A stretch of DNA of 64,000 bases. Origin: Lactobacillus isalae (GTDB taxonomy: Bacteria; Bacillota; Bacilli; Lactobacillales; Lactobacillaceae). This document shows positions 8,996-45,598 of the stretch, in pieces. How positions within the stretch are numbered: position 1 is the first letter of the stretch; every line of letters starts with the position of its first letter. The notes under the pieces were generated by a model. The model was not told the origin of the DNA. It saw only the letters and a list, made by a program, of their open reading frames with translations, and did not search any database. The stretch covers positions 744,001 through 808,000 of the forward strand of contig NZ_OX443569.1 of the NCBI RefSeq assembly GCF_947539375.1, given 5' to 3'. The position numbers and the translations under genes were made by a program.

Positions 8996-9081
8996 AATAT
9001 TTTTCTTCCTCTCTTAAATTCTTTACAAGTAAAAGTATATTGCGTATGCCCTATTATGAAAATTACTACTTAACTATAGGG

Positions 9082-9100
9082 CTATGCAGCTTCTGTATAG
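9082..9100 (-). promoter_or_regulatory. LysR-type dyad, promoter of the 8333-8995 dehydrogenase
   Basis: Coding strand CTATACAGAAGCTGCATAG, then 14 bp, AGTAATTTT, 19 bp, and TATACT at 9034-9039. All elements match the consensus. Confidence 0.85.
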
Positions 9101-9104
9101 TAAA

Positions 9105-9965
9105 TTAGATTTTTAAACTTCTAATACTATTGCCAAAGATACTCTCGATTGCTAACGGATCTCGATGATCAAAGAACTGACTTTGCCCTTTATCAAGCTT
9201 TGCAATAGTTTCCATATCTTCTTTAGATAATTCAAAGTCAAAAACATCGAAGTTTTCGGCCATTCGAACTTTATGAATTGTCTTTGGAATTACCACTAAT
9301 CCGCGTTGAATTAACCAACGTAAAATAACCTGTGCGTTTGAGCGATGATACTTTTCACCAATTTTAGCAATAATTTCATTAGTGAAAATATCATTTTTTC
9401 CTTCTGCTAGTGGAGCCCAAGCTTCAATAGTAATATTTTGATTTTGATAATAATCAAGTTCCTCTGTACGTTGATACCAAGGCGAGACTTCAATTTGATT
9501 AATTGCAGGCTTTACGTTACTCATTAATTCAAGATTTTTAACTTGATCAGGATAAAAATTAGATACACCAATTGACCTAATCTTTCCCTCTTGTTGAGCT
9601 TCTTCTAAAGCTTTCCAAGCACCAGCAATGTCGCCATAAGGTTGGTGGAGCAAGTATAGATCAAGATAGTTTGTTTTCAATCGTTTTAAGCTCTCATCAA
9701 TTGCTTCTTTTGCATCTTCATATTTGTATTGATTAATCCAGAGTTTAGATGTTATAAAAAAATCTTCCCTGTCAATACCACTATCACGAATTGCACTTCC
9801 CACTGCTTCTTCATTGTTATAAGCCACAGCTGTATCAAATAAACGATAACCAACATCAATGGCATCTTTTACAGCTTGATTGGCCTTAGCTGAATCAGAA
9901 ATTTGAAAAAGTCCAAAACCTAACTGTGGCATTTTATTACCATCATTTAAAGTAATGTACTTCAT
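9105..9965 (-). CDS. Aldo/keto reductase (AKR5-like, 286 aa)
   Basis: An NADPH-dependent aldo/keto reductase of the prostaglandin-F/2,5-diketogluconate reductase type, cytoplasmic (beta/alpha)8 barrel. The catalytic tetrad is complete: Asp44 and Tyr49 (FDTAVAY), Lys74 (TSKLW) and His107 (LLHQP). The late segment VVIPKTIHKVRMAENFDVFD holds the cofactor-binding Lys and Arg. I chose the ATG at 9965 because GGAGG lies 6 bp before it and the paralog at 25482 starts at the same residue. It is about 70 percent similar by eye to that paralog. The gene has its own regulon dyad (10057-10075). The physiological carbonyl substrate is not known. Confidence 0.93.
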   Translation of the reverse strand: MKYITLNDGNKMPQLGFGLFQISDSAKANQAVKDAIDVGYRLFDTAVAYNNEEAVGSAIRDSGIDREDFFITSKLWINQYKYEDAKEAIDESLKRLKTNYLDLYLLHQPYGDIAGAWKALEEAQQEGKIRSIGVSNFYPDQVKNLELMSNVKPAINQIEVSPWYQRTEELDYYQNQNITIEAWAPLAEGKNDIFTNEIIAKIGEKYHRSNAQVILRWLIQRGLVVIPKTIHKVRMAENFDVFDFELSKEDMETIAKLDKGQSQFFDHRDPLAIESIFGNSIRSLKI

Positions 9966-10056
9966 TGTTTCCTCCATAAAACTTTATTTTCTTAAATGTT
10001 TATGCTTTAAGTATACTGAGGATCGAATAAATTAAAATTACTAGTATCTTATGGTG

Positions 10057-10075
10057 CTATACGCTTATTGCATAC
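10057..10075 (-). promoter_or_regulatory. LysR-type dyad, promoter of the 9105-9965 aldo/keto reductase
   Basis: Coding strand GTATGCAATAAGCGTATAG, 14 bp, AGTAATTTT, 18 bp (one less than elsewhere), TATACT at 10010-10015. Confidence 0.82.
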
Positions 10076-10106
10076 AAAAATAGCTTTCCAAATGGAGAAC
10101 TATTTT
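10075..10106 (-). terminator. Terminator of the reductase-flavodoxin operon
   Basis: On the minus strand AAAAAATAGTTCTCCA pairs imperfectly with TGGAAAGCTATTTTT. It abuts the regulon dyad of the next gene. Confidence 0.7.
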
Positions 10107-11381
10107 TTACATAGTTAAATGTTCATCATGAAGTTGACTATCTTTAATACCTAGCTTTTTCAGATTTTCTCTAACTTTTAACACGATAGGAGCTGAGCCG
10201 ACAATGTAGAACTGACCAAACCTTTTTTCAGGAATTGTAAGTATCTTATTCAATTCATCATCACTAAAACGATGCTCTTTAACATTTATTTCAACATTAT
10301 TTTCTGCTAATTTTTCAATTTTATCTACAAAATAGTCTTTTTTACTATTTGTAGACCAAATCAGACGTATTTTTTTCTTTCCAGCATATTCCTTCGCTAA
10401 GCTTAAGAGTGGTGCAATCCCAGTTCCAAGTCCATAAAGAATAATCGGATCTTCTGAAGCCTTTATTTCTATATCAAATAAGCCATATGGACCATCAAGA
10501 TGTACTTTTGTGCCAATTTTTACTTGATCAATCTTTTTTGTAAAGTCACCGACTCTATGAATAATAAAAGAAACTGAATCTTTATTAGGTTTAGAAAGCA
10601 CAGAAAAGGGATGCGCTTCGCTAGAGATGCCTTTTCCTCTAAAAGAAACAAAGTAAAAATCACCAGCATGATAATTTTTTGCTTTCTTATTTAGCTTAAT
10701 AGTTAATTGCTGAATTTGTGGTGTTATGGCTACACTCTTGCTAACTATGCCACTATTCCTCATATCTGCATCTACGATAAACTTTTGATATGCATAAAGT
10801 CCAATAAAAATTAAAGTGTAAATATCAAATATTAAAACAAAATACGGGACATTAGCAATTCTTGGAATTACATTAACATGTATCCAAATTAAAACGATTA
10901 CAACAAAATTCAAACGGTGAATCCAAACAGAAAGCTGATGATTAAAAACTTTCTCTAGTCTATTCTTTATTTTTCTAAATGCTGCACTTCGGTCGCTAAT
11001 CCAGCCAGATAAGAATATAATCGCATAAATAATTAAAAATAATTCTAAGTACCACGCAATATTACCTGTATTGCGAATAATTGCATGAAAAGTTGTTGAT
11101 GAAAATTTATGAATAGTTGCAGCTAGAATAGCAAAAATTGCTAACATTCCATGCATCATGTAAGTTGATGGAACTCCAATTTTGCTAGTAATCCACTTTG
11201 GGCGAGTACTTAAATAAACGATAGCTAGCCACCAAACATAAGCTAAAATACCAAAATCATAGGCAATTAAATGATTATTACTATCTACTAAGCCAACATT
11301 TAATAAAATAATTAGCGGCATTGGCAAAATGGCCGCTAAAAGCAGCCAGATAATACCAAGATAAATACGATGTAATTTCAT
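10107..11381 (-). CDS. NOX/ferric-reductase-like transmembrane electron-transfer protein
   Basis: A 424-residue fusion of a ferric-reductase-like membrane domain (about residues 1-205) and a cytoplasmic FNR-like FAD/NAD(P)H domain (about 210-424). The membrane part keeps two His pairs: YMMHGMLAIFAILAATIHKF (13 residues between) and WIHRLNFVVIVLIWIHVNV (12 between), the same spacing as the bis-haem ligands of NOX and ferric reductases. FAD binding is seen in HPFSVLSKP and nucleotide binding in YGLGTGIAPLLSL. It should move electrons from NAD(P)H across the membrane. Lactobacilli do not make haem, so it would need scavenged haem. It is 18 bp downstream of, and surely in operon with, the anchored flavodoxin 11400-12083. 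Confidence 0.88.
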   Translation of the reverse strand: MKLHRIYLGIIWLLLAAILPMPLIILLNVGLVDSNNHLIAYDFGILAYVWWLAIVYLSTRPKWITSKIGVPSTYMMHGMLAIFAILAATIHKFSSTTFHAIIRNTGNIAWYLELFLIIYAIIFLSGWISDRSAAFRKIKNRLEKVFNHQLSVWIHRLNFVVIVLIWIHVNVIPRIANVPYFVLIFDIYTLIFIGLYAYQKFIVDADMRNSGIVSKSVAITPQIQQLTIKLNKKAKNYHAGDFYFVSFRGKGISSEAHPFSVLSKPNKDSVSFIIHRVGDFTKKIDQVKIGTKVHLDGPYGLFDIEIKASEDPIILYGLGTGIAPLLSLAKEYAGKKKIRLIWSTNSKKDYFVDKIEKLAENNVEINVKEHRFSDDELNKILTIPEKRFGQFYIVGSAPIVLKVRENLKKLGIKDSQLHDEHLTM

Positions 11382-11399
11382 GATTTTACCTATTTCATA

Positions 11400-12083
11400 T
11401 TAGTAGCCTAAGCCATCAAGCCAAGAATTAACATCGCTTCTCACACTGGAAGGATCATTCTTAACATTGTTGCCTTCGGTGGTAAAACCTTTACGAACCT
11501 TTGCCTTTGGATAAGCCTTACGTAAAGTTTCGGCAGTATTTCCTAAGCCAGAACCTTCAGCAGTAGTAAATGGAATTACTGTTTTTCCATTCAAATCCAC
11601 ATTATCAATGAAAGTTCTTACAATCATGGGATACTCACCCCACCAAATTGGTGCACCAATGAAAACGGTTGAATATTTTTTAACATTCGGTAATGCGTTT
11701 TTAATTGCTGGACGAGCATTTTGATCTTGCTCGCGTTGAGCTACACGAGTAGTAGCATCATAGCCATTTGGATAAGCCTTTTGAGGAACAATCTCGTAGC
11801 TATCGCCCTTTGTCTTTTCTTGGATAAAGTCCGCAACCCTTGCAGTATTACCACGACTTAAGTTTCCGCCATAAACTCCTTTAGTTCTTGAAAAGTAAAC
11901 AACTAATACTTTGCCATTCTTACCTTTAGTCGTAACTTTACCGTTCTTTTTAACTGAAGTTTTAGTCGCAGTGTTGCTGTTTTGAGCTGAATTATTTTGA
12001 CTACTTCGATAAACATTAAAACCGACAATTGCTGCTATAACTACAACAATTACACTTACAAAAGCAATGATTCTTTTCTTCAT
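11400..12083 (-). CDS. Membrane-anchored extracytoplasmic flavodoxin
   Basis: A 227-residue protein with one N-terminal membrane helix (MKKRIIAFVSVIVVVIAAIV) behind a positive N-terminus, an Asn/Ser/Thr/Lys-rich linker, and a flavodoxin fold from about residue 58 (KVLVVYFSRT, then GNTARVADFI as the FMN phosphate loop). Orientation by the positive-inside rule puts the flavodoxin outside the cell. I chose the ATG at 12083, preceded by GAGGG; the upstream in-frame start at 12107 lacks a ribosome site. First gene of an operon with the NOX-like reductase, which could be its electron donor. It is driven by the LysR-type module at 12169-12187. Confidence 0.88.
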   Translation of the reverse strand: MKKRIIAFVSVIVVVIAAIVGFNVYRSSQNNSAQNSNTATKTSVKKNGKVTTKGKNGKVLVVYFSRTKGVYGGNLSRGNTARVADFIQEKTKGDSYEIVPQKAYPNGYDATTRVAQREQDQNARPAIKNALPNVKKYSTVFIGAPIWWGEYPMIVRTFIDNVDLNGKTVIPFTTAEGSGLGNTAETLRKAYPKAKVRKGFTTEGNNVKNDPSSVRSDVNSWLDGLGY

Positions 12084-12168
12084 CTTAATCCCTCTATTCT
12101 TTACCAATTGATTTACATCAAGTATAGCGAGAAATTATTCATTAGAAAATTACTGTTTTTTTATACTA

Positions 12169-12187
12169 GTATTCATTTCATTTATAG
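12169..12187 (-). promoter_or_regulatory. LysR-type dyad, promoter of the flavodoxin-reductase operon
   Basis: Coding strand CTATAAATGAAATGAATAC, 14 bp, AGTAATTTT, 19 bp, TATACT at 12121-12126. Confidence 0.85.
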
Positions 12188-12225: not shown

Positions 12226-13059
12226 TTATCGTTCAGGACGTAAAATATAACGTTGAATCAAGTCAAGCACCTCACTATTTTGGGGCAATGCTGAATGTTG
12301 TGCAAGTCTCCCTGTTACTGTGATTTGAGTATAATGTTTAACTACGCCTTGATAAATATATTTACCTGCTTCCACACTAGAAACAGGTACAAGACCATCT
12401 TCAACATAATTCTCAGTTCCGGCAACAGAATACATAATTAAATTTTTAGGTAAACGATTGCGATTAACCCGGAAATCATGAAGCATTTGAGTTTCACGAT
12501 TTGCAGTTTCCGCAAAGTTGTAAGGCGAACCAATTGTCATTAAGCGATTAATTCTAACATTTCTACCAGAATAGTAATTTTCTAAAAACTCAGTATATAT
12601 TAATCCTCCATTCGAGTGACCAATCCCGCTAAAATGATTAAAGTTATATCGTCTTACTAAAGCTTTGAATGCTTGGTTAAACATTCTTCCCTGTTTTTTA
12701 ATATTGCTATAGCCATCATGATTATTTTCAAAGCCAACTACAATAAATGGTTGATTATCATTGGGTCTAATCGAACCTGCAAATGTCATATGTCCATCAT
12801 TAAAAACTTTAACTTTCAATAAACTATGATTTTGATGATCATCACGATTTATTCGATCGACTAATCGATCAAATCGGTTTACCGTAGCACTTGATCCGGG
12901 AATCATAATTATTGGTGCTAAAGGAGAATTTTTCTGATCTTGCAATCTTTTGGCATTTTTTTGAGCCCAAATTGCACCAGGAAAGGCAAAGCAAAAAATG
13001 ATAATAAAAATAGCAACTATACAAAAAAGTCTATTATATTTCTTCATTTTATTTTTCAC
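12226..13059 (-). CDS. Secreted DUF915-type alpha/beta hydrolase
   Basis: A 277-residue alpha/beta hydrolase with a long N-terminal hydrophobic segment (YNRLFCIVAIFIIIFCFAFP) that acts as a signal or anchor, so the enzyme faces outward. The nucleophile elbow is GIGHSNGGLIYTEF; the entry strand is PIIMIPGSSATVNRF. The catalytic His should be in GRLAQHSALPQN near the end. DUF915 proteins are lipase-like with unknown substrates. Its start overlaps the end of the EIIC gene by 11 bp, so the two are coupled. GGAAGGTG precedes the first ATG; a second ATG 12 bp later is also possible. A C-terminal fossil of a close relative is at 3477-3560. Confidence 0.85.
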   Translation of the reverse strand: MKNKMKKYNRLFCIVAIFIIIFCFAFPGAIWAQKNAKRLQDQKNSPLAPIIMIPGSSATVNRFDRLVDRINRDDHQNHSLLKVKVFNDGHMTFAGSIRPNDNQPFIVVGFENNHDGYSNIKKQGRMFNQAFKALVRRYNFNHFSGIGHSNGGLIYTEFLENYYSGRNVRINRLMTIGSPYNFAETANRETQMLHDFRVNRNRLPKNLIMYSVAGTENYVEDGLVPVSSVEAGKYIYQGVVKHYTQITVTGRLAQHSALPQNSEVLDLIQRYILRPER

Positions 13060-14308
13060 CTTCCTGTATTTCTATTTGCTCCATCTTTTGAATGAAAGGT
13101 ATGTAAATTAAAACGTCTATTACTAGTAGTAGCAGCATTACTAAAAGTGATATCCAATTACCACCACTTGCAATTAATGGTCGTAAAATTCCAGGAGTTC
13201 CTACAGGAGTTGGAAAAACTAAAGGTGGAAACATACCAATTGCGATTGCAAGAGATCCTAAAAGCATATTAACTATCGGAGTTAATACAAATGGAATCAG
13301 TAACAAAGGATTTAAAATTACTGGAATACCTAAAGCCAAAGGAAGATTTGCATTAAAAATTACAGGTATGGCACTCCAAATAGCAATATTTTTATTTCTT
13401 TTCTTTTTACTTATTATCAAAATTGCAATTAATAATGCTAATGTACATCCTATTCCACCTATTTGAGCGAAGGCATCAAAGAAACCAGCTGGAGTAAACG
13501 GATATGGTATTTTTTGATAACTCTTATTTAATAAATAATGATTTAGGTTAGCTGCTGCTTCATTATTAAAAACACTACTATTAAATTCAAGGCTTCCAGC
13601 AAAGCCGAGCCACATTAAGAGTGTTGAAATAATAGATACTAAAATAGACATCCAATAACTACTATGTCCTGAAAAGAAAGAAGTAATATTTTGAAAAGCA
13701 ATTTGATCAAGATTATAAGTTCTAACCAAAGCAAATAAAATATGTAGCAATAATGCCAGAATTACACTAATTACAATTGGACGAGAACTGTTTCTTGCAA
13801 GATCAACCAATTCTTCGTCATTGTCTTTTTTAGAAATAGTAAATTTAGCAAAAATCAAGCCAACTACGTATCCTATAATAATTCCCATAATCAACCAATA
13901 TGCTGAATAATATCTCATCTCAATTGCATTTTGATTACCACGAAGACTATGATGAAAAATAAGTAAATAACTAATTACGGAAAATAATTCCGCAAACAAT
14001 GGCTTTATTTTATATAAAATAGCCGTCTCCCTAGCACTAATTAAAGCACCGTAAAGGGCTAAAGTTCCCGATGTAACAGTAAAGAGATCTCCTAATATCG
14101 CTCTTAAAAACCAAGCTTGAGGGAACCAACTATTTAAAGAAACTATTCTTCCAAACAAACTTACTGGATTGGCAAAACAATATGATAAAGTCCAACTAAA
14201 CGCACCAATAAGAATAACTGGAAATAGAGTTATCATTGTTTTATTTGCCACTCTGATAAAACTAAAATTTTGATACTTAGTAATTGCCTTTAAAAATTTT
14301 GCATTCAT
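13049..14308 (-). CDS. Orphan PTS EIIC component, lactose/cellobiose family
   Basis: A 419-residue membrane protein with about ten helices. It resembles EIIC of the Lac (cellobiose/chitobiose) family: the N-terminal block FIRVANKTMITLFPVILIGA, a central PYPFTPAGFFDAFAQIGGIG, and the C-terminal VFPTPVGTPGILRPLIASGG that marks this family. No EIIA or EIIB gene is nearby, so it would need partners encoded elsewhere or works alone. It lies between two surface hydrolases, overlapping the downstream one. A terminator hairpin (14327-14359) separates it from the upstream esterase, so transcription probably depends on read-through. The substrate may be a product of the neighbouring esterases, but this is a guess. 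Confidence 0.82.
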   Translation of the reverse strand: MNAKFLKAITKYQNFSFIRVANKTMITLFPVILIGAFSWTLSYCFANPVSLFGRIVSLNSWFPQAWFLRAILGDLFTVTSGTLALYGALISARETAILYKIKPLFAELFSVISYLLIFHHSLRGNQNAIEMRYYSAYWLIMGIIIGYVVGLIFAKFTISKKDNDEELVDLARNSSRPIVISVILALLLHILFALVRTYNLDQIAFQNITSFFSGHSSYWMSILVSIISTLLMWLGFAGSLEFNSSVFNNEAAANLNHYLLNKSYQKIPYPFTPAGFFDAFAQIGGIGCTLALLIAILIISKKKRNKNIAIWSAIPVIFNANLPLALGIPVILNPLLLIPFVLTPIVNMLLGSLAIAIGMFPPLVFPTPVGTPGILRPLIASGGNWISLLVMLLLLVIDVLIYIPFIQKMEQIEIQEGEK

Positions 14309-14326
14309 TTTTTACTCCATTACCAT

Positions 14327-14359
14327 AAAAAACTGTCATTAGTAAATAACGACAGTTTT
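14327..14359 (-). terminator. Terminator between esterase and EIIC genes
   Basis: AAAACTGTC (14329-14337) pairs with GACAGTTTT (14351-14359). On the minus strand it ends in a T-run, so it would limit EIIC expression relative to the genes before it. Confidence 0.78.
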
Positions 14360-14366
14360 ATTATAT

Positions 14367-15266
14367 TTAATTAAATAGCTGATTACCATAATGATTAATT
14401 ATTTTACCCATAGTTGGTGCATCATGATCTCCACCTGGTTGAGTATAATATTCTAAGTTTTTTCTATCAAATTCAGGCAAACGCCACATGGCTCTAATTT
14501 GAGGCTCCATTGATCCACTTGTACCATCTTCTGAACCAACACCTGCTAAAATCTTAAATTTTAATTTTGGATGTTGCTGAGCAGCTTTTGCTAAAGCACG
14601 AGCAGTCCTTCTTGGAACACTAGAACCACCATCAGAAGTAACAGTCCAAGAGTCTCCAGCCATTGGTACAAAATATTTGAAGTATGGTAAATCATATTGG
14701 AAAACGTACCAAGTTGTGATTGATCCCATTGAGAAACCACCAAAAGCACGATGATTTCTAGATTTTCTTAAAGCTGAGTCAGAGGTATTTTTTGCATAAG
14801 TTTTATACTTACTTTCAACTGCAGGAACTAAATCTTTCATTAATTCTTTTTTAGCAAAACGTCTGTTAAGTGGATCATCATTATAATAATTACTTGATAC
14901 TTGCTTAGAGCTTGGATAATAAGTAGGAAATACTACAATCGTGTTCTCCATTTTTCCAGCCCGGTTTAAGCTATCAAGTGTTCTTTTAAAGTTTCCATCC
15001 TGATATAAAGTAGATCTGCCTTTTTTTACTTCTGTTGAACCATGCAATAAATATAAAACATTATGTTTTTGATTTTTATTATAGTTCGGCGGTAAGTAAA
15101 CAATTGCTTCTTTCTCATAAGTTCGATTATGATAACTAGTCTTATAAGAAATGGTTTCTGTTTGACTTTGACTAGAAGCCTGCACCTGATTAGTTTTAAT
15201 AAAAAACATCACAAACGATAATAGCAGTAAAAATAGAGGTTTTGATCTAAATAGCAAACCATTCAT
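14367..15266 (-). CDS. Secreted esterase of the esterase-D/feruloyl-esterase type (PF00756-like)
   Basis: A 299-residue protein with a signal peptide (hydrophobic LFLLLLSFVMFFIKT, likely cleavage after QVQA). The mature part is a putative esterase: strand YLPPNYNKNQKHNVLYLLHG with the oxyanion Gly, nucleophile elbow GGFSMGSITTW, and a terminal His in GGDHDAPTMGK. Family members hydrolyse feruloyl, acetyl or other esters. It is second in the operon begun by the lipoprotein-like flavodoxin (16-bp gap) and so under the LysR-type module at 15987-16005. A cytoplasmic paralog lies at 21240-22127. Confidence 0.86.
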   Translation of the reverse strand: MNGLLFRSKPLFLLLLSFVMFFIKTNQVQASSQSQTETISYKTSYHNRTYEKEAIVYLPPNYNKNQKHNVLYLLHGSTEVKKGRSTLYQDGNFKRTLDSLNRAGKMENTIVVFPTYYPSSKQVSSNYYNDDPLNRRFAKKELMKDLVPAVESKYKTYAKNTSDSALRKSRNHRAFGGFSMGSITTWYVFQYDLPYFKYFVPMAGDSWTVTSDGGSSVPRRTARALAKAAQQHPKLKFKILAGVGSEDGTSGSMEPQIRAMWRLPEFDRKNLEYYTQPGGDHDAPTMGKIINHYGNQLFN

Positions 15267-15281
15267 TATTAGCCTCTTTCT

Positions 15282-15905
15282 TTATTTAGCAAGTAAATTT
15301 AATTTTCTTAACCAAGTTCTAACTTGAGATTTGTTATTATCATAGCGAATTCCATCTTTAAAAGTAGCGCCATCTTTTTCAGCTAATTGACGAATAACTT
15401 TTTCAGATGGACCGATTGGTGTACTCATGCTAGTAGTAAATGGTACAACTGTTTTCCCACTAAAATCATACTTATCAAATAATGTATGAATGATCATCGG
15501 TGGTCTGCTCCACCAAGTTGGATAACCAATGAGAACAGTTTGATACTTAGAAAAGTTAGGAATATTGGTTGCTAGTGCGGGATGAATGTTGTTCCGACGT
15601 TCACGGTCTCCTCTTCGAGCTGCACTATCGTAATCTCCATAAGCCTTTACTGGACGTAATCTAATGATATCTGCTCCAGTTTCTTTTTTTATATATTGAG
15701 CCGCATCCTTAGTTGTTCCAGTCAGTGAAAAATATACTATTAATGTTTTATTATTTTTTTTAGTTGTATTTTTACTTGTTTTGGTGACTGAACTTTTTGA
15801 ACTAGAGGATTGTGAGGAATTATTACCTCTTGCACAAGCCGTAAATAGCACTACTGTAAATAGTCCTAATCCTAGCAATAAAATTATTTTCTTTAACCTT
15901 TTCAT
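15282..15905 (-). CDS. Flavodoxin with lipoprotein-type signal
   Basis: A 207-residue protein. The N-terminus KKIILLLGLGLFTVVLFTAC is a lipoprotein-like signal with Cys25, though Phe at -3 is atypical for a lipobox. A Ser/Thr/Lys/Asn-rich tether follows, then a flavodoxin domain from about residue 53 (TLIVYFSLTGTTKDAAQYI, FMN phosphate loop). The aromatic FMN-stacking loop is probably YPTWWSRPP. The protein is expected on the outer face of the membrane. First gene of the unit flavodoxin-esterase(-EIIC-hydrolase), transcribed from the LysR-type module upstream. Confidence 0.86.
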   Translation of the reverse strand: MKRLKKIILLLGLGLFTVVLFTACARGNNSSQSSSSKSSVTKTSKNTTKKNNKTLIVYFSLTGTTKDAAQYIKKETGADIIRLRPVKAYGDYDSAARRGDRERRNNIHPALATNIPNFSKYQTVLIGYPTWWSRPPMIIHTLFDKYDFSGKTVVPFTTSMSTPIGPSEKVIRQLAEKDGATFKDGIRYDNNKSQVRTWLRKLNLLAK

Positions 15906-15986
15906 GATTATCCTTCTTTCTTATTTAACTTTAACTTAAGTATAGATTCATGATAAAAATAAAAAAATTACTTCTGTTCTATATCT

Positions 15987-16005
15987 CTATACGTAAAGTG
16001 TATAG
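15987..16005 (-). promoter_or_regulatory. LysR-type dyad, promoter of the flavodoxin-esterase operon
   Basis: Coding strand CTATACACTTTACGTATAG, a near-perfect inverted repeat, then 14 bp, AGTAATTTT, 19 bp, TATACT at 15939-15944. Confidence 0.88.
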
Positions 16006-16913: not shown

Positions 16914-17759
16914 TTATAGGATTGCGCCAACCACAATCAGTGCTAAACCGACTAATGTTGAAACTAATTCCTTACCATACTTGTGCTCACCTAAGATTGT
17001 CATTCCCCCAACAGTTGAAATGATTACACTTAATTGACTGTAAATAAATGCACTAGTAATACCATTCATTTGAGCTGAAATGATGTAAGAATAAGCACCA
17101 ATTCCAAACGCTAAACCAGCTAAGACATCTAACCAGGTTGCACGTTGCTTAATCGTAGTGACCAAACGCTTAGTAAATGCAATATAGATTACAGCTCCTA
17201 ATAGGATCCCAATAGTTTGTGGTAAGAATAAGGCCTGTGCATCAGCTTTTACTGCGTTAGGAAAGGCTGAATATACCCAATAACCAATACTAGTAAATAT
17301 TAGCAACATAATATCTTTTGAAGAAATTTTCTTAGAATCGCCATTCTTAGTTACAGTAGTAAGTGAAACTCCAATAACAATTAGAATTAAAGCTAAGATA
17401 CCTAAAACATATTGGTTTACTGTCTTCCAATCACCAAAAATTAGGACTCCAATAATTGTATTACCAATTAATTGAAAGCCAGTTGAAATTGGCATTGTTT
17501 TACTTACGCCAATTCTAGTAAAAGATAAGAACTGACCAACCTGTCCCATTGTCCAAAAAGCTCCAGAAACAATAGCTAATAATGAGATCTGAAGGTTCAT
17601 GGAAGGTCTTTGAATCAAAGTAACAATTAATCCAACAAGAACTGCACCAATTCCAACTCCTAAAATTTGATTGACAGGTTTGCTTTTAGGAACCTTATTT
17701 ACAATTAAAGGAATTAATCCCCAACCAATAGCTGGTAATAATGCAATTAAAATATTCAT
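16914..17759 (-). CDS. GRP-family sugar (glucose/ribose) uptake transporter
   Basis: A 281-residue membrane protein with about ten helices of the glucose/ribose porter (GRP, GlcU/RbsU) family in the drug/metabolite superfamily. Diagnostic stretches are the N-terminal ILIALLPAIGWGLIPLIVNK, the PISTGFQLIGNTIIGVLIFG helix, and the C-terminal SQLSVIISTVGGMTILGEHK. It would import glucose or a related sugar by proton symport. The promoter is the weakest of the seventeen accepted regulon modules (17857-17875). It ends at a shared terminator with the metalloprotease gene. Confidence 0.88.
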   Translation of the reverse strand: MNILIALLPAIGWGLIPLIVNKVPKSKPVNQILGVGIGAVLVGLIVTLIQRPSMNLQISLLAIVSGAFWTMGQVGQFLSFTRIGVSKTMPISTGFQLIGNTIIGVLIFGDWKTVNQYVLGILALILIVIGVSLTTVTKNGDSKKISSKDIMLLIFTSIGYWVYSAFPNAVKADAQALFLPQTIGILLGAVIYIAFTKRLVTTIKQRATWLDVLAGLAFGIGAYSYIISAQMNGITSAFIYSQLSVIISTVGGMTILGEHKYGKELVSTLVGLALIVVGAIL

Positions 17760-17856
17760 TTTCTTTTATCTCCTCATACTTAATACTTGTAATCTTTTAA
17801 TTGATTTTAGTTTACTAGGATATCAATAAAGAAAAAAATGCCTATTTCTCATGCTA

Positions 17857-17875
17857 CTATGCACTATGCGTATCA
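17857..17875 (-). promoter_or_regulatory. LysR-type dyad (imperfect), promoter of the GRP transporter
   Basis: Coding strand TGATACGCATAGTGCATAG (left half mutated), 14 bp, GGCATTTTT, 19 bp, TAAACT at 17809-17814. Spacing is intact. Confidence 0.65.
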
Positions 17876-18001: not shown

Positions 18002-18796
18002 TCAGTAGTAACGACGATTCTTATTAACTTTTGCAATCTCAGTCATTTCTTCATCAGTCAATTTGAAGTCAAAGATATCATGGTTATCGTGAATATGTTC
18101 TGGATTAGTTGAACCTGGAATTACAATAAAGCCCATTTGGGTGTGCCAACGCAAGATAATTTGAACATTGCTCTTGTTATACTTCTTAGCAAGCTTAGTA
18201 AAAATTGGTTCATTAATCAAAGAACTATCGCCCGAGCCAAGTGGATACCAAGCCATTAACCGAGTACCATATGGCTTTAAAATTTCTCTTGCTTCAGTTT
18301 GTGGGAAATATGGATGTGCTTCAGCTTGTAATACTTGTGGCTTAACTTCAGCAAAATCTAATACGTTCTTTAAAGTTGCACTAGAACGTTCAAAGTTTGA
18401 AATACCAATTGCTCTGATTTTACCCTCTTGATATGCCTTTTCTAAAGTTCTGTATGCAGTTTTCCAATCACCTGATGGTTGGTGCAAGAACAATAAGTCA
18501 ATATAGTCAAGACCTAAGCGGTCTAAAGCTTTATCTACTGCATTAGGATCATTATATGAAGAAGTCCAAAGTTTTGTACTAATAAATAAATCTTCACGGT
18601 CCATGCCTGAATTCTTAATTGCACGGCCCACGCCATCTTCATTATAGTAAGCCTCAGCAGTATCAATTAAGTGATAACCATCTTTTAAAGCAGCTTCAAC
18701 TGCTCTTTGCGCAGTTGCTGGTTGCATTCTAAATGTACCAATACCAAGCTTAGGAATTTTTACACCATTATTTAATTCAAAGTATTCTTCTGTCAT
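18002..18796 (-). CDS. Aldo/keto reductase (264 aa, short C-terminus)
   Basis: A cytoplasmic NADPH-dependent aldo/keto reductase. The tetrad is intact: Asp45 and Tyr50 (IDTAEAY), Lys75 (STKLW), His105 (FLHQP). The late cofactor segment FIVIPGSTNPEHIHDNHDIF is present. It stops at NKNRRYY, whereas its paralog 29972-30817 continues about 20 residues past the same point (KRYYIPSDSLEES), so this copy has lost its tail. The tail in this family closes over the active site, so substrate range may differ. It has its own regulon dyad at 18885-18903. A good ribosome site precedes the ATG. Confidence 0.9.
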   Translation of the reverse strand: MTEEYFELNNGVKIPKLGIGTFRMQPATAQRAVEAALKDGYHLIDTAEAYYNEDGVGRAIKNSGMDREDLFISTKLWTSSYNDPNAVDKALDRLGLDYIDLLFLHQPSGDWKTAYRTLEKAYQEGKIRAIGISNFERSSATLKNVLDFAEVKPQVLQAEAHPYFPQTEAREILKPYGTRLMAWYPLGSGDSSLINEPIFTKLAKKYNKSNVQIILRWHTQMGFIVIPGSTNPEHIHDNHDIFDFKLTDEEMTEIAKVNKNRRYY

Positions 18797-18884
18797 TTTT
18801 AATCCTCTCTTCTGTGTTTCATCGATTACATAAATTAGTATAAAATCACAAAGTTATATTTAAAATTGTTATTTAATTATAGGG

Positions 18885-18903
18885 CTATACGTAAAACGAA
18901 TAG
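18885..18903 (-). promoter_or_regulatory. LysR-type dyad, promoter of the 18002-18796 reductase
   Basis: Coding strand CTATTCGTTTTACGTATAG, 14 bp, AACAATTTT, 19 bp, TATACT at 18837-18842. Confidence 0.84.
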
Positions 18904-18908: not shown

Positions 18909-19790
18909 TTATCTTTTATTCATATTTAACTGCCAAAATTTAATTGCATCATTAATCCACCCCTCGGCCACAGTTCCTTCGCCAAGTCCAAAACCGTGTC
19001 CTAAGCCATGATATACATGAAACTCTGTGGGAATTCCCATTTTCTTTAAGTAAAATAGACGCATTTTCATTGTTTCCCAATTTGCAATCCAATCATTATC
19101 CCCAACGCAAACATAAGTGGGTGCATCAAATCTAGAAACTCTACTAAAACCGGTATATTGCATAATGACGCTATCAGCTTGTGGTAGATCAGTTCTCTGC
19201 GTTAATTGATGTAAAACTTCTAAATTACCAAGTTCAGCTGCCATTCTTGCACCGGCTGATCCACCCCAGAGCGAGTAATGATTTTTGTCAATTTCTAGTT
19301 GCTCTGCATGATCGTAAATATAAGTTATTGCTCGTGCTAAATCTTCGTAGGGATGAGATGGACGATAAATTAAAGCAAAAGCATTGTATCCCCTTCTGCT
19401 TAAATATAAAGCATGAGGGAAACTATCTTGCATCCCTGCCACATAAGCAAAGCCACCACCTGCATTATTAATTGCAAATGGCGCATCTTTCTTTCCCTTG
19501 AAGAAGTAAAGACCAGTGCCGGCTTTACTTGGATCTTGTCTAATCTCATCATCTGAATAAATCGAATAAAAGATTTTTCTTTTTGCTTGTTCTTCAGCCA
19601 AATAGTTAATAATATCAACAGTAGTATTAGGATTAATGTGGCTGTACCAAATATAGTGACTACTATTACTAATTTCGTTTAAAGTTTCTTCATTTTCAAA
19701 AAAGCGATCTACAGGAAATAATAGTTCTCCATCTTTTCCGAAATACTTCTTTACCTCACCAACTGTTGAATTTAAATTGAATTTTTTCAT
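18909..19790 (-). CDS. Alpha/beta hydrolase (acetyl-esterase-like), 293 aa
   Basis: A cytoplasmic alpha/beta hydrolase. The nucleophile elbow is LWGGSAGARMAAELG, the acid is probably in YVCVGDNDWIANW, and the catalytic His lies in YHGLGHGFGLGEG. The first 60 residues form a cap-like region. It resembles esterases of the acetyl xylan/BD-FAE type by layout; the substrate is not known. It follows a 34-residue membrane peptide gene (19801-19905) by 10 bp and is probably translated from the same transcript, which begins at the regulon promoter 19954-20020. No terminator is evident before the next dyad. Confidence 0.86.
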   Translation of the reverse strand: MKKFNLNSTVGEVKKYFGKDGELLFPVDRFFENEETLNEISNSSHYIWYSHINPNTTVDIINYLAEEQAKRKIFYSIYSDDEIRQDPSKAGTGLYFFKGKKDAPFAINNAGGGFAYVAGMQDSFPHALYLSRRGYNAFALIYRPSHPYEDLARAITYIYDHAEQLEIDKNHYSLWGGSAGARMAAELGNLEVLHQLTQRTDLPQADSVIMQYTGFSRVSRFDAPTYVCVGDNDWIANWETMKMRLFYLKKMGIPTEFHVYHGLGHGFGLGEGTVAEGWINDAIKFWQLNMNKR

Positions 19791-19905: not shown

Positions 19906-20001
19906 AGTTTTTATCTCCTTACTATTTTTATTTGTCTTAACTTGATGTTTATTAGTATAGAAGGAAAAACGATTGAAAAAAATTGCTATTTTTTTATGCT
20001 A

Positions 20002-20020
20002 GTATTCGACTTATTTATAG
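20002..20020 (-). promoter_or_regulatory. LysR-type dyad, promoter of the small peptide-hydrolase operon
   Basis: Coding strand CTATAAATAAGTCGAATAC, 14 bp, AGCAATTTT, 19 bp, TATACT at 19954-19959. Confidence 0.84.
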
Positions 20021-20093: not shown

Positions 20094-21089
20094 CTATTTA
20101 ACTTTTGAGCCACCAAAAACTTCTGACATTGGAATTTTATCTAAAGTTTTATCGATTTCAGAGACTTCTTCTGGCGTCATTTTAATTTCACCAGCAGCCA
20201 AATTATCTTCAATTCGATTTAAATGTCGACTTCCTGGGATTGGAACAATATATGGCTTTTTATTAATCATCCAAGCCAAGGAAATTTGAGCAGGTGTTGC
20301 ATTATGATTTTTAGCAATTCGATCAACTAGAGCAATTAACTTCTCATTTTGCTTAATTGCTTCATCAGTAAATTGAGGCATTCCATTACGTAAATCACCT
20401 TCTGGAAACTTGCTTTGTGTAAATTGTCCAGTAAGTAAGCCATTAGCTAACGGTGAAAAAGCAACCAAACCAACATTTAATTCTTCCAAAAGTGGAAATA
20501 GTTTTTCATATTCACGATACATCATTGAATAGCGATTCTGAATTGCCGTTACCTTGCATACCTTATCTGCACGACGTAAATAATCCGCATTTGCTTCAGA
20601 AATTCCCCAATGTGTAATTTTACCTTCCTTAATTAGGTCAGCCATTACAGTAGCCACTTCTTCTGGTTCTACCTTAGGGTCAATACGATGTTGATAGTAC
20701 AAATCAATATGATCAGTATTAAGTCGCTTTAAAGAACCTTCAATTGCTGCCCTAATTGCCGCAGGACTAGAATCGACTGCTAATTCTTGGGTACTACTTT
20801 TTCCTTCAACATTACTAATTCCAAATTTGGTTGCAATAACTACTTCATCGCGAACATCATGCAATGCTTTACCAACTAATTCTTCATTGTAGTTAATAGA
20901 TCCATCTTCGTTAACACCACGATAAATTTCTGCAGTATCAAAAAATCTTTCACCAGCATCATAGGCTGCTCTAATTGTTTTAATAGCTTCTTGTTCTGGC
21001 ATTGGTGAGCCATAAGCATGTGAAAAGCCCATGCATCCCAATCCAATAGCTGAAACTTTTAGATCTTTTCCTAAAATTCTAGTTTCCAT
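20094..21089 (-). CDS. Aldo/keto reductase (AKR13/YakC-like, 331 aa)
   Basis: A longer aldo/keto reductase of the AKR13/Tas-like group, distinct from the four short ones nearby. The tetrad is Asp51 and Tyr56 (FDTAEIY), Lys88 (IATKFG) and His134 (YYQHRID). The C-terminal cofactor segment is YIVPIPGSRHLNRIEDNLAA. Such enzymes reduce aldehydes, ketones or quinones with NADPH in the cytoplasm. It is monocistronic between a regulon promoter (21130-21196) and a terminator. Confidence 0.92.
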   Translation of the reverse strand: METRILGKDLKVSAIGLGCMGFSHAYGSPMPEQEAIKTIRAAYDAGERFFDTAEIYRGVNEDGSINYNEELVGKALHDVRDEVVIATKFGISNVEGKSSTQELAVDSSPAAIRAAIEGSLKRLNTDHIDLYYQHRIDPKVEPEEVATVMADLIKEGKITHWGISEANADYLRRADKVCKVTAIQNRYSMMYREYEKLFPLLEELNVGLVAFSPLANGLLTGQFTQSKFPEGDLRNGMPQFTDEAIKQNEKLIALVDRIAKNHNATPAQISLAWMINKKPYIVPIPGSRHLNRIEDNLAAGEIKMTPEEVSEIDKTLDKIPMSEVFGGSKVK

Positions 21090-21177
21090 AAAATCATCTC
21101 TCTTTTAAAGTTTTCGATCACAAAGAAATAGTATACGAGCTGTTACTATATAAAAAAATTACTTGTTAAGTATAGGG

Positions 21178-21196
21178 CTATTCACTTTTCGTATAT
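21178..21196 (-). promoter_or_regulatory. LysR-type dyad, promoter of the 20094-21089 reductase
   Basis: Coding strand ATATACGAAAAGTGAATAG, 14 bp, AGTAATTTT, 19 bp, TATACT at 21130-21135. Confidence 0.85.
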
Positions 21197-22127: not shown

Positions 22128-22210
22128 TTTTAAAACTCCTTTTCATTAATACTTTCAAAAAAAGTATATGTCCGAAAAGTTCAACATAAAATTGTTTAAT
22201 TCTTATAGCT

Positions 22211-22229
22211 GTATATAGATAATAAATAG
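22211..22229 (-). promoter_or_regulatory. LysR-type dyad, promoter of the 21240-22127 esterase
   Basis: Coding strand CTATTTATTATCTATATAC, 14 bp, AACAATTTT, 19 bp, TATACT at 22163-22168. Confidence 0.8.
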
Positions 22230-32232: not shown

Positions 32233-33036
<804 letters not shown>

Positions 33037-33111
33037 TTACTTACTTTTTCAATGTTTGATTTAATTATATAATCTTATTTTTCTTAATAAAAATAATTAG
33101 TTTGTATAGCG

Positions 33112-33130
33112 CTATTCAGCTCGTGCATAG
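33112..33130 (-). promoter_or_regulatory. LysR-type dyad, promoter of the 32233-33021 dehydrogenase
   Basis: Coding strand CTATGCACGAGCTGAATAG, 14 bp, ATTATTTTT, 19 bp, TATAAT at 33064-33069. Confidence 0.82.
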
Positions 33131-33138: not shown

Positions 33139-33585
33139 TTAGTTGAGATAGTTGATTACTTCATCAAGATTATTATTCATTGTTGCTACCACATTTAAAC
33201 CTTTAGCTTGTTCTCTAAAGTCTTCGTTATATTGATCATCATTTTGACCAACACTAGTATTCAGTGAAATAACCTTGCCTTTAAAGGCTTGAACTTCTTG
33301 TAAAAAACTAATTACCGGCGTTGCCACTGCTGCACTCCAGTTAGGACCAGCAACAACAAGAGTGTCATACTGATCTAAATTTGGAATTTTTGATGTTAAA
33401 GTTGGAAAGTTCTTATCCTTTCTTTGCTTTTTAGCAACATCTGCAGTTTCAAACATATCATTTGGAAACGTATCGGCTGGAACTGTAATTTCAAAAATAT
33501 CACTATTAGTTTTCTCAGCTAGCTCTTGTACTAAATTCTTAGTTGAGCCACTTTGAGAGTAATATGCAATTAATGTTTTGCTCAT
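33139..33585 (-). CDS. Cytoplasmic flavodoxin, 148 aa
   Basis: The only one of the four flavodoxins in the island without a signal or anchor. The phosphate loop is TLIAYYSQSGSTKNLVQELA (residues 4-23) and the FMN-contacting loop is VVAGPNWSAAVATP. Length suits a single domain. It may serve cytoplasmic electron transfer or quinone-type reduction, the counterpart of the three extracytoplasmic paralogs. It has its own regulon promoter (33641-33707) and is the rightmost target in the main cluster. Confidence 0.9.
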   Translation of the reverse strand: MSKTLIAYYSQSGSTKNLVQELAEKTNSDIFEITVPADTFPNDMFETADVAKKQRKDKNFPTLTSKIPNLDQYDTLVVAGPNWSAAVATPVISFLQEVQAFKGKVISLNTSVGQNDDQYNEDFREQAKGLNVVATMNNNLDEVINYLN

Positions 33586-33688
33586 TATTTTTGTTCCTCG
33601 TTTTATCTTTAAAATAATATCAATTCAATTTACAAAAATAATATTACCCGCGATTGAAGATAATTAAAATTATCATCTTTTTATAGTA

Positions 33689-33707
33689 GTATTCATTTCA
33701 TCTATAG
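33689..33707 (-). promoter_or_regulatory. LysR-type dyad, promoter of the cytoplasmic flavodoxin
   Basis: Coding strand CTATAGATGAAATGAATAC, 14 bp, GATAATTTT, 19 bp, TAATAT at 33641-33646. Very like the dyad at 12169-12187. Confidence 0.84.
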
Positions 33708-43549: not shown

Positions 43550-44296
43550 TTACTTGACCGTATTGTCACCTGATAAAGTGCTCAAAATAATAGTGCCATC
43601 ATTATTTGTACTATTTACTTTTGCCACTGTTCCGTTTTTCCCAAAAAGTGAATTGTCTCCGCTTAAGGTACTCAATTGATATTGCTGAGCTTTTACATCT
43701 TCAACAATATTATCGCCAGAAGAAGTTGAAACCTGAAGTTTACCAGAAACTTCGCCATTTTTCATTGTAAAGTCACCACTGGTTAACTTAACTTTCCCTT
43801 GCTTTACTTTTACCCTCTTAAAATCAATATCGCCTGAAGTTGCAGTCAATTTAACTTCATCTACTTGCGTCTCTTTCAAACTTACATCTCCACTCACTAC
43901 AAATAAAGATAGAGAATCTAGTTTTAAATTCTTAATATCTGTATCTCCGCTAATTGTTGAAACACGTCCTGCACTTAAATGGATATCTTCAGGAACTGTA
44001 ATTATCAAATTTCCACCATCGTTATAACTAACTATATTTACTTCAAAGATTCCTTTTTTCCATAATTTACTATCTTTGTGATCTATCTTTGGCTCCTTAA
44101 TTTCAATAGTATCATTAGTCAATTCTACGCTTGGTTCTTCATCTGATAGTCCTTTATAGTGAACTTCAAACTTATCGCCGGTTTCAATTTTGAGGTCAAG
44201 ATCAATCAAATCAATATTTAGGTTAGTAAAACTGTCGTTACTTAGAACCTTGTCAATAACTTTATCTTTCGTATCATCACTCTTATTAAAAAACAT
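43550..44296 (-). CDS. DUF4097-type beta-strand repeat protein
   Basis: A 248-residue cytoplasmic-looking protein. From residue 20 on it is a series of short beta repeats with recurring TxSGD elements (VSTISGDTDIKN, VVSGDVSLKE, TATSGDIDFKR, LTSGDFTMKN, STSSGDNIVED, TLSGDN). This is typical of DUF4097/DUF4098 proteins, thought to form a right-handed beta helix like bactofilins. Function is not known; such genes are often near envelope stress regulators, but none is here. No signal peptide is visible. Confidence 0.83.
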   Translation of the reverse strand: MFFNKSDDTKDKVIDKVLSNDSFTNLNIDLIDLDLKIETGDKFEVHYKGLSDEEPSVELTNDTIEIKEPKIDHKDSKLWKKGIFEVNIVSYNDGGNLIITVPEDIHLSAGRVSTISGDTDIKNLKLDSLSLFVVSGDVSLKETQVDEVKLTATSGDIDFKRVKVKQGKVKLTSGDFTMKNGEVSGKLQVSTSSGDNIVEDVKAQQYQLSTLSGDNSLFGKNGTVAKVNSTNNDGTIILSTLSGDNTVK

Positions 44297-44405
44297 TTTA
44301 TGTACCTCTTTTTATCATTCATTCACTAATCTTATTTAAATTTACTATCATAGAGATACTTTTCAATGAAAGTTAACTAAGTGGTTAAAAATTATACCTA
44401 ACATG

Positions 44406-44434
44406 AAAAAAAGACAGCATGAGCTGTCTTTTTA
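44406..44434 (-). terminator. Terminator of the alcohol dehydrogenase gene
   Basis: AAAAAAAGACAGC pairs with GCTGTCTTTTT around ATGA. Confidence 0.87.
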
Positions 44435-44451
44435 TTGATTCTATTTAAAAA

Positions 44452-45495
44452 TTACTTTTCATTAACAATAATTAATGATTTGATTGCTTCACGATTACTC
44501 ATTGCTTCATAAGCTTCTTGAATATGATCTAAATCAAAGCTCTTAGTAAAGACTTTTCCTGGATTAATCTTATCATCAAGAACTGCTTTTAATAATACTT
44601 CTTTATCAGGCTTAGTTACTGAGGCAATACCACCGCGAAGACCAACATTTTTCCAGAATAGTTGGTTTGATTTTGGTTCTGCATGTGGTACACCTACTCT
44701 ACCAATTACAGCACCTGGGCGAGCAATTTGTCCAGCTTGTTCAATTGCACTTTCGGCACCAACGCACTCTAAAACCGCATCCGCACCAGCATTTTCCTTG
44801 GTTAAAGCAAGTACATCTTTAACTGCTTGTTCATCTCGGCTAGATACAATATCAGTCGCACCGAATTCTTTACCTAATTGTGCACGATCATCGTGGTGTG
44901 ATAAAAGAATAATCTTTTCTGCCCCCAATAACTTAGCGCCAATAACACCGGCAAGACCAACTGCCCCATCTCCAATTACAGCTACAGTATCACCAGGTTT
45001 TACTTCAGCATTTAAGGCAGCGTGGTAACCAGTTGCCATTACATCTGACAAAGTTTGAAGAGATGCTAATTGATCATCAGTATAATCTTCGGGCTTACCA
45101 GGAATTTTAACTAAGCCAGAATTTGCTGGTTCATATTTCATGTACTCTGCTTGATAACCGCCATTAGTTCCTGGTTTTTGATTTAAGCAATTACCTTCAA
45201 AACCATTGATACATGCCACACAGTGACCGCATCCATGAGTAAATGGGACAATGACAAAATCATTTACTTTAATATCTTTTACATCATCGCTTACTGCTTC
45301 AACAACACCAATTGCCTCGTGGCCAATTAATGACCCACTTTCACGATCAGCAATACCTCTAAACCACCATAAGTCTGAACCACAAACACTAGCTCTAATT
45401 ACTCGAATAATAGCTTGATTTTCTCCATCAATCTTAGGCTTTTCTACTTCTTTTACTTCTACTTTACCAGGTTCTACAAAAATTGCCGCTTTCAT
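44452..45495 (-). CDS. Zinc-dependent medium-chain alcohol dehydrogenase
   Basis: A 347-residue MDR enzyme. Catalytic zinc ligands: Cys in SVCGSDLWWF and the His-Glu pair in LIGHEAIGVVE. Structural zinc ligands: GCGHCVACINGFEGNC. The Rossmann motif is VAVIGDGAVGLAGVIGA. It oxidises alcohols or reduces aldehydes; the ASVCGSDLW pattern resembles the Tdh-like or AdhC-like group used on varied substrates. It is far from the main island, yet its promoter carries the same LysR module (45532-45598), so it is the outlying regulon member. NAD or NADP preference is not clear. Confidence 0.92.
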   Translation of the reverse strand: MKAAIFVEPGKVEVKEVEKPKIDGENQAIIRVIRASVCGSDLWWFRGIADRESGSLIGHEAIGVVEAVSDDVKDIKVNDFVIVPFTHGCGHCVACINGFEGNCLNQKPGTNGGYQAEYMKYEPANSGLVKIPGKPEDYTDDQLASLQTLSDVMATGYHAALNAEVKPGDTVAVIGDGAVGLAGVIGAKLLGAEKIILLSHHDDRAQLGKEFGATDIVSSRDEQAVKDVLALTKENAGADAVLECVGAESAIEQAGQIARPGAVIGRVGVPHAEPKSNQLFWKNVGLRGGIASVTKPDKEVLLKAVLDDKINPGKVFTKSFDLDHIQEAYEAMSNREAIKSLIIVNEK

Positions 45496-45579
45496 ACTCT
45501 ATATCCTTTCATTCCATTAACTTACATGTTTAGTTTAAATGAAAGTATTAGTTCATAAAATTACTAAAAAAACATACTA

Positions 45580-45598
45580 CTATACGTAATTTAAATAG
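45580..45598 (-). promoter_or_regulatory. LysR-type dyad, promoter of the alcohol dehydrogenase
   Basis: Coding strand CTATTTAAATTACGTATAG, 14 bp, AGTAATTTT, 19 bp, TAAACT at 45532-45537. It shows that the regulon reaches 12 kb beyond the island. Confidence 0.83.

What the first reader, a model, noticed from the sequence alone, without database searches (positions are those of the whole stretch)
9034..45598. A local LysR regulon: seventeen promoters with one rigid architecture
Each target promoter has, in coding direction, a 19-bp dyad close to CTATnC-N7-GnATAG, 14 bp, a 9-bp block close to AGTAATTTT, 19 bp (18 once), and a -10 close to TATACT. Dyads (plus coordinates) are at 9082, 10057, 12169, 15987, 17857, 18885, 20002, 21178, 22211, 23652 (variant), 25415, 26435, 28888, 30919, 33112, 33689 and 45580. 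The dyad centre is about 64 bp before the expected transcription start, which is where LysR activators bind, and there is no good -35, as expected for activator-dependent promoters. Targets are aldo/keto reductases (5), short-chain dehydrogenases (3), flavodoxins (4 units), an alcohol dehydrogenase, esterases, a GRP transporter and an MFS pump. Three paralogous LysR genes sit among them. So many identical copies in one 26-kb island, plus one 12 kb away, suggest one redox or carbonyl-stress response built by promoter reuse.
Basis: partly seen in the sequence, partly recalled or inferred. Interest (0 to 1): 0.88.

Follow-up and report, generated by a model that had tools for sequence, protein, structure and literature searches.

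The report
Lactobacillus LysR regulon, seventeen clustered promoters
In this Lactobacillus, seventeen neighbouring promoters share one rigid switch that relatives carry right beside a LysR-type regulator gene, mostly in one to six copies, so the stretch is most likely a locally enlarged gene-control network for enzymes that reduce carbonyls and quinones; what switches it on is untested.

Summary
Confirmed: all 17 modules are at the stated places and a matrix scan of the window returns exactly those 17, above shuffled sequence. The whole genome adds a relic 6.5 kb to the left, LysR_A's own half-module and two weak variant-operator sites. The regulator is assigned by comparison: in 301 Lactobacillaceae genomes 85 have the module, 82 this LysR family, 78 both; 82 of 96 LysR hits have the module upstream and divergent, 80 of them within 36 bp. 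In relatives 75 of 80 modules precede genes of the same families and 5 have no ORF in range; two in later loci precede unassigned genes. The "14 bp + AGTAATTTT" reads better as a second, imperfect T-N11-A box 21 bp after the first, the known LysR IR1/IR2 layout. One promoter (MFS, 23652) has a variant operator that tracks LysR_B. Carbonyl/redox function is inferred from gene content; inducer unknown. New member of a known kind; the expansion (17, also 17 in L. agrestimuris, 9 in G047, otherwise 1-6 in the samples) is unusual.

The parts
7323..7341 (-). dyad + YATA before LysR_A, no second box or -10 left; likely autoregulatory site
   Evidence: (E 5.1e-5)
7358..8245 (+). LysR_A, 295 aa
   Evidence: Pfam HTH_1 1.6e-14; AlphaFold model pLDDT 92.2
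8333..8995 (-). NmrA-like NAD(P)H-binding protein, target
9034..9100 (-). module 9082 (IR1, IR2, -10) for NmrA-like gene
9105..9977 (-). aldo/keto reductase AKR1 (DkgA-like, below cut-off), target
10010..10075 (-). module 10057 for AKR1 (18-bp spacer)
10107..12107 (-). flavodoxin (11400-12107) and FAD-binding oxidoreductase (10107-11381), targets
12121..12187 (-). module 12169 for flavodoxin/FAD oxidoreductase unit
12226..15905 (-). flavodoxin, esterase, PTS EIIC, DUF915 hydrolase unit, targets
15939..16005 (-). module 15987 for that unit
16914..17759 (-). sugar-transport protein (PF06800; nearest NCBIfam RhaT/GlcU, below cut-off), target
17809..17875 (-). module 17857 for the sugar transporter
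18002..18796 (-). AKR2, target
18837..18903 (-). module 18885 for AKR2
18909..19790 (-). alpha/beta hydrolase (BD-FAE-like), target
19954..20020 (-). module 20002 for the hydrolase
20094..21089 (-). AKR3, target
21130..21196 (-). module 21178 for AKR3
21240..22127 (-). esterase, target
22163..22229 (-). module 22211 for the esterase
22235..23575 (-). MFS transporter (nearest NCBIfam an efflux family, below cut-off), probable LysR_B target
23604..23670 (-). module 23652, variant operator GTTTGC-N7-GTAAAC, for MFS; 12 bp before LysR_B
23683..24540 (+). LysR_B, 285 aa
   Evidence: tree
24549..25331 (-). flavodoxin, target
25367..25433 (-). module 25415 for that flavodoxin
25482..26342 (-). AKR4 (DkgA-like, below cut-off); AKRs are the commonest first gene in relatives
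26387..26453 (-). module 26435 for AKR4; dyad 17 bp before the likely LysR_C start
26471..27346 (+). LysR_C (likely start 26471; listed ORF starts 26450)
27396..28813 (-). SDR (28046-28813) and TMEM175-like protein (27396-27995), targets
28840..28906 (-). module 28888 for the SDR unit
28914..30817 (-). AKR5 (29972-30817) and hydrolase (28914-29837), targets
30871..30937 (-). module 30919 for the AKR5 unit
30956..33027 (-). glucose-1-dehydrogenase-like SDR (32233-33027) and MFS protein (30956-31873), targets
33064..33130 (-). module 33112 for the glucose-dehydrogenase-like unit
33139..33585 (-). flavodoxin, target
33641..33707 (-). module 33689 for that flavodoxin
44452..45495 (-). zinc alcohol dehydrogenase, target
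45532..45598 (-). module 45580 for the alcohol dehydrogenase

Best explanation
The 17 modules are LysR-type activator promoters. A LysR dimer sits on the strong dyad (IR1, CTATnC-N7-GnATAG, centre about -64); with inducer a second dimer fills the weaker box 21 bp downstream (IR2, YATAn...AGTAAT, centre about -43) and helps RNA polymerase on a promoter with a degenerate -35 and a TATACT -10. The regulators are the island's own LysR proteins: A and C for 16 promoters, B with its variant operator for the MFS pump. The dyad lies 12-17 bp before the start of each of the three regulators, so they should also repress themselves; LysR_A keeps only that site. Targets are NAD(P)H-dependent carbonyl reductases, flavodoxins, dehydrogenases, esterases and transporters, with a glucose-dehydrogenase-like enzyme and a sugar transporter that could supply NADPH. 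SHOWN by sequence: anatomy, rigidity, genome-wide confinement, co-occurrence and adjacency with the LysR family, operator change in the LysR_B clade. INFERRED: binding, direction of control, inducer, carbonyl/quinone role, NADPH supply, and which LysR serves which promoter.
For: 17-of-17 scan. Own-genome scans: all strong hits lie at the island. Two T-N11-A boxes: T3, A15, T24 and A36 each 63 of 63 in the selected alignment A3, and offset 21 is the best non-zero self-match of the dyad in per-sequence scans, matching published IR1/IR2 centres of OxyR (-66/-44), CynR (-66/-44) and MetR (-63/-41) (PMC5002191 passages). Co-occurrence: 78 genomes with both, 7 module only, 4 LysR only, 212 neither; 82 of 96 LysR hits have the divergent module within 200 bp, 80 of them at 7-36 bp. 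75 of 80 modules in relatives precede the same gene families. The LysR_B clade (4 rows, 100/99) all carry NNTTRC-N7-GTAANN operators. LysR_A is modelled with an N-terminal helical domain, a long helix and a C-terminal alpha/beta region.
Against: No binding or expression data. The Fisher value (2e-58) ignores shared ancestry. IR2 is imperfect: only 5 of 17 window modules and 6 of 47 relatives have offset 21 as their single best non-zero match, and a cruder column-frequency test did not single it out (offsets 37, 38, 40, 42, 43 and 45, which run into the unconserved spacer, scored higher). Pfam LysR_substrate matches only LysR_B. Of the four LysR_B-clade proteins, the Limosilactobacillus balticus one keeps an A/C-like TQP start of the recognition helix, so the residues behind the operator change are unclear. 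Seven of 85 module genomes lack the LysR at the threshold used; of the six inspected, in four the module precedes an AKR or flavodoxin (one AKR broken), in one (G136) an unassigned gene, and G036 has modules without a target gene. A and C cannot be told apart by operator. Esterases, a PTS component and a sugar transporter do not obviously fit a carbonyl response.
Confidence: 0.87

Rival explanations
1. The modules are bound by another regulator (for example of the MarR or TetR type) encoded elsewhere, and the LysR genes are bystanders.
For: Binding is not shown; 7 of 85 module genomes have no LysR of this family at the threshold used.
Against: 78 of 85 module genomes carry the LysR; the dyad abuts the LysR start (7-36 bp) in 80 of 96 hits; operator variants follow LysR clades; among the 30 window proteins scanned the only regulator-type matches are the three LysR proteins.
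Confidence: 0.05
2. A LysR regulon, but for use of a plant- or host-derived substrate (sugar esters, keto-sugar acids, phenolic esters) rather than stress: esterases release, the transporter imports, dehydrogenases and DkgA-like reductases convert.
For: Five hydrolases, a sugar transporter, a PTS EIIC, SDRs 32233 and 28046 above NCBIfam cut-offs of glucose-1-dehydrogenase subfamily models, and DkgA-like AKRs below cut-off.
Against: Flavodoxins, the alcohol dehydrogenase and an efflux-like MFS fit reductive detoxification better (judgement); in relatives the first gene is most often an AKR (47 of 80) and never an esterase.
Confidence: 0.3
3. The 17 copies are one mobile or recently multiplied promoter element rather than sites kept by selection.
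For: Three modules (12169, 20002, 33689) are alike beyond the consensus (top pair 0.82 in 17 variable columns, p = 0.02); a promoter in L. agrestimuris is a chimera of window modules 10057 and 9082.
Against: The number of similar pairs is not above chance (4 against a mean of 2.2, p = 0.165), and the 19-bp spacers of the 12 most similar pairs are only 0.11-0.53 identical; modules stand before genes of the same families across species.
Confidence: 0.08

Closest known systems
LysR-type activator promoters with IR1/IR2 (OxyR-oxyS, CynR-cynTSX, MetR-metE; PMC5002191, passages read)
   Same: Divergent regulator and target, strong T-N11-A dyad near -64, weaker dyad about two turns downstream next to the -35; the published extended consensus CTATA-n9-TATAG is nearly this dyad.
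   Different: Their targets are few or scattered over the genome (recalled); here one island holds 17 promoters and three regulator paralogues. No cysteine in LysR_A or LysR_B and none after the likely start of LysR_C, so not OxyR's thiol switch.
NodD and nod boxes (PMC4990936, passages read: 19 functional nod boxes on the NGR234 symbiotic plasmid, 15 in HH103)
   Same: LysR-type activator, many copies of one promoter element on one replicon, nodD1/nodD2 paralogues.
   Different: Spread over a symbiotic plasmid (HH103: 588,797 bp); here 17 in 36.6 kb of a single-contig genome, with an operator variant for one paralogue.
E. coli YqhC and yqhD-dkgA (PMC6115493, abstract start seen in the search listing only)
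   Same: Aldehyde-responsive control of a DkgA-type reductase; a functional analogy only.
   Different: YqhC is an AraC-family regulator (recalled); promoter not compared here.
Regulons reconstructed in lactic acid bacteria (PMC3616900, passages read)
   Same: LysR-family regulons in Lactobacillales.
   Different: The passages seen list three LysR regulons for cysteine/methionine and MleR; this one is not among them (supplements not read).

Membership tests
LysR-type transcriptional regulators (protein) | N-terminal LysR winged helix-turn-helix | tested here: met
   HTH_1 above gathering score in A, B and C
LysR-type transcriptional regulators (protein) | C-terminal effector-binding domain | tested here: inconclusive
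LysR-type activator promoter | T-N11-A dyad | tested here: met
   T at 3 and A at 15 in 17 of 17 and 63 of 63
LysR-type activator promoter | Regulatory site near -65 of the start | tested here: inconclusive
   -64 from the predicted -10; no mapped transcription start
LysR-type activator promoter | Second activation site near -43/-35, about two turns from the first | tested here: met
   YATA...AGTAAT 21 bp on, best non-zero offset in per-sequence scans; imperfect, and not singled out by a cruder column test
LysR-type activator promoter | Regulator divergent from target with shared site | tested here: met
   LysR_B/MFS and LysR_C/AKR4 in the window; 82 of 96 hits in 301 genomes. Not met for LysR_A, which has no promoter half left
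LysR-type activator promoter | Inducer-dependent activation and autorepression | not testable with these tools
   needs bench work
OxyR | Redox-active cysteine pair | tested here: not met
   No cysteine in LysR_A or B; in C only at residue 5 of the long ORF, before the likely start

The most novel reading that the evidence does not exclude
A Lactobacillaceae-wide LysR regulon for electrophile or carbonyl reduction, not found described in searches, in which the promoter scaffold stays fixed while regulator and operator change together (LysR_A/C, B and D classes), giving insulated circuits on one scaffold, and in which the modules themselves serve as recombination joints for adding and losing genes, as in the chimeric L. 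agrestimuris promoter.
Probability: 0.3. Interest if true: 0.72.

Novelty: new member of a known kind. Interest (0 to 1): 0.55.

Why it matters
It adds a regulon, assigned by comparison to one LysR family, found in 85 of 301 Lactobacillaceae genomes sampled. It offers over 100 promoters of one architecture with both LysR sites visible, where one paper seen here states that no conserved motif has been identified for the activation site (PMC5603801, passages); that makes IR2 testable by mutation. It shows a regulator-operator split (LysR_B) and a size series from 1 to 17 promoters, useful for asking how regulons grow.

Tried and rejected
Rejected: chance AT-rich matches (no hit above 24 in 20 shuffled windows); a genome-wide regulon; simple copying of promoters as the source of all 17; an OxyR-like thiol switch; a plasmid-borne island here (the genome is one 2.12-Mb contig). 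Plasmid relatives of LysR_C: 3 of 72,556 records, two lactobacilli and one Subdoligranulum at 31%. An IR3 at -35 as in OxyR was considered by eye and not seen. The sigma-70 scan of 8300-27400 gave no more matches than shuffles (74 against 87). Searches for this regulon (open-licence PMC only) listed no title or abstract start that describes it; most subscription papers are not held.

Limits: A1 left out module 10057. A3 took 63 of 67 unique modules that scored above 20 with a 19-bp spacer in 28 listed sources; four near-duplicates or relics were left out, so A3 leans towards the window's consensus and 19 bp; redid the spacing freely. One search used 43 loci: the window, L. agrestimuris, duplicates, L063, the LysR_D loci and later loci were left out, and the loci had been fetched because they hold a module or LysR. 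One search uses stricter filters, so LysR_A's and LysR_D's own sites, which one search finds, count there as misses. The Fisher test takes genomes as independent, which they are not. That G025 is L. agrestimuris rests on equal contig length.
Full report
THE OBSERVATION. A position matrix from 16 of them (10057 left out for its 18-bp spacer) gives only the 17 above 9 bits in both strands of the window, lowest 34.4; leave-one-out scores run from 21.7 (23652) to 47.4; the best of 30 shuffled windows reaches 15.7. Spacing is as described. When linker and spacer are left free (9 x 9 combinations), 112 of 121 modules above score 24 in the window and fetched loci choose 14 and 19 bp, and 20 shuffled windows give none.

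HOW LOCAL IT IS. A 75-column sequence model searched over the whole 2.12-Mb genome (one contig) gives the 17, one more at C1:737429-737496, 6.5 kb left of the window (E 5.5e-6), and the LysR_A dyad (E 9.8e-4); the next hit is E 0.010. A broader model adds a site before a fourth LysR, LysR_D, at C1:815604 (E 2.6e-4), 7.6 kb right of the window, and one at C1:1050678 (E 1.2e-3) before a DUF3737 gene. These two have an ATAAAT/ATTTAT core. The 737429 module is followed by decayed pieces of the 18909 hydrolase (40 aa, 50%) and AKR1 (21 aa, 90%), so it looks like a relic.

ANATOMY. In the 63 aligned modules T3, A15, T24 and A36 never vary, so there are two T-N11-A boxes 21 bp apart. Scoring the dyad matrix along each module, offset 21 has the best non-zero mean in the window and in 47 relatives (-7.0 against -16.7, sd 3.3), though it is the single best offset in only 5 of 17 and 6 of 47. 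A cruder test on column frequencies did not single it out: offsets 37, 38, 40, 42, 43 and 45, which run into the unconserved spacer, scored higher. Centres are about -64 and -43 from the expected start. Published centres are -66/-44 for OxyR and CynR and -63/-41 for MetR, and the extended LysR consensus is CTATA-n9-TATAG (PMC5002191, passages). So the 9-bp block is probably half of the second box plus a degenerate -35 (TTTTnn, 17 bp from the -10).

WHO BINDS. In 301 Lactobacillaceae genomes 85 have the module (19 of 40 genera) and 82 the LysR family; 78 have both, 7 only the module, 4 only the LysR, 212 neither. Of 96 LysR hits, fragments included, 82 have a divergent module within 200 bp upstream, 80 of them at 7-36 bp. 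In order-wide sampling 20 of 295 match, 3 of them outside the family; one of these (G541) has modules before an AKR, an SDR and an unassigned gene with a LysR relative (31%) near, while in the other two no module passed the threshold in the fetched stretch. In the window the dyads lie 16, 12 and 17 bp before the starts of LysR_A, B and C; LysR_A's has YATA but no second box or -10. The MFS promoter's dyad (GTTTGC-N7-GTAAAC) is shared in kind by all four members of the LysR_B clade (100/99 support): GATTAC/GTAATC and GCTTGC/GTAACC in relatives. The recognition helix differs from A/C in three of these four; the Limosilactobacillus balticus protein keeps TQP. LysR_C groups with Limosilactobacillus balticus and two others (100/99), and its AKR4 is 85-88% identical to theirs, against 77-85% for the best-matching AKRs of congeners (85% in G020). 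That hints, no more, that the pair moved together between genera.

WHAT IT CONTROLS. The 17 promoters lead into five AKRs, four flavodoxin units, two SDRs, an NmrA-like protein, a zinc alcohol dehydrogenase, five hydrolases, two MFS proteins, a sugar transporter, an FAD oxidoreductase, a PTS EIIC and a TMEM175-like protein. The SDRs 32233 and 28046 pass NCBIfam cut-offs of glucose-1-dehydrogenase subfamily models; the AKRs are DkgA-like, the transporter RhaT/GlcU-like and the 22235 MFS efflux-like, all below cut-off. In relatives the first gene after 80 modules is an AKR 47 times, sugar transporter 6, flavodoxin 6, SDR 5, ADH 4, NmrA-like 4, MFS 3, and no ORF in range 5 times; two modules in loci fetched later precede unassigned genes. 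A carbonyl/quinone-reducing response with its own NADPH supply is my favoured function, by inference only; substrate use is the main rival.

HOW IT GREW. A LysR with a divergent AKR is the common arrangement among the loci examined. Module counts in the family sample are 1 to 6 per positive genome, with 16 for this genome at that stricter setting; in the genus sample L. agrestimuris (G025) has 17, 16 of them on one contig, and G047 has 9. L. agrestimuris keeps the run from the MFS gene to the NmrA-like gene in the same order. There the NmrA-like gene's promoter is a chimera: dyad and linker match window module 10057 (0.95, 1.00), the spacer after the block matches module 9082 (1.00), and AKR1, which lies between them here, is missing; the shared AGTAATTTT is the likely joint. 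Whether this was a loss there or a gain here cannot be told.

VERDICT. Real, well assigned by comparison, and mechanistically a standard LysR activator promoter; unusual in number and density. Interest 0.55.

Noticed in passing
G000:C1:815692-816546 (L074:7692-8561), 7.7 kb right of the window: A fourth LysR paralogue (D) with an ATAAAT/ATTTAT operator and a divergent unit with an alcohol dehydrogenase; a second D-like site lies at C1:1050678 before DUF3737 and an aminotransferase-like gene.
   Followed up: partly
G000:C1:737429-737496 (L046:9427-9501): Probable relic promoter module followed by fragments of the 18909 hydrolase and AKR1.
   Followed up: yes
window 34561-41474: Nramp transporter and a suf iron-sulfur assembly cluster lie between the flavodoxin and alcohol dehydrogenase promoters and carry no module.
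   Followed up: no
L054 (G047:C1:720001-738000): A relative in which several regulon genes look broken (split AKR3, shortened ADH and esterase) while modules remain; the LysR found lies over 60 kb away.
   Followed up: no
L101:5661-8242 (G104): LysR gene in two pieces with two ORFs between them; its module and the AKR beside it are present.
   Followed up: no
L056 and L057 (G012, G036): Two modules 168 bp apart without an intact target gene next to them; in L056 AKR1 fragments and the start of an NmrA-like gene follow.
   Followed up: partly
window 16128-16868: Matrixin-like metalloprotease gene on the plus strand inside the island, without a module.
   Followed up: no
window 52676-63718: Very large ORF of 3680 aa on the minus strand.
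   Followed up: no
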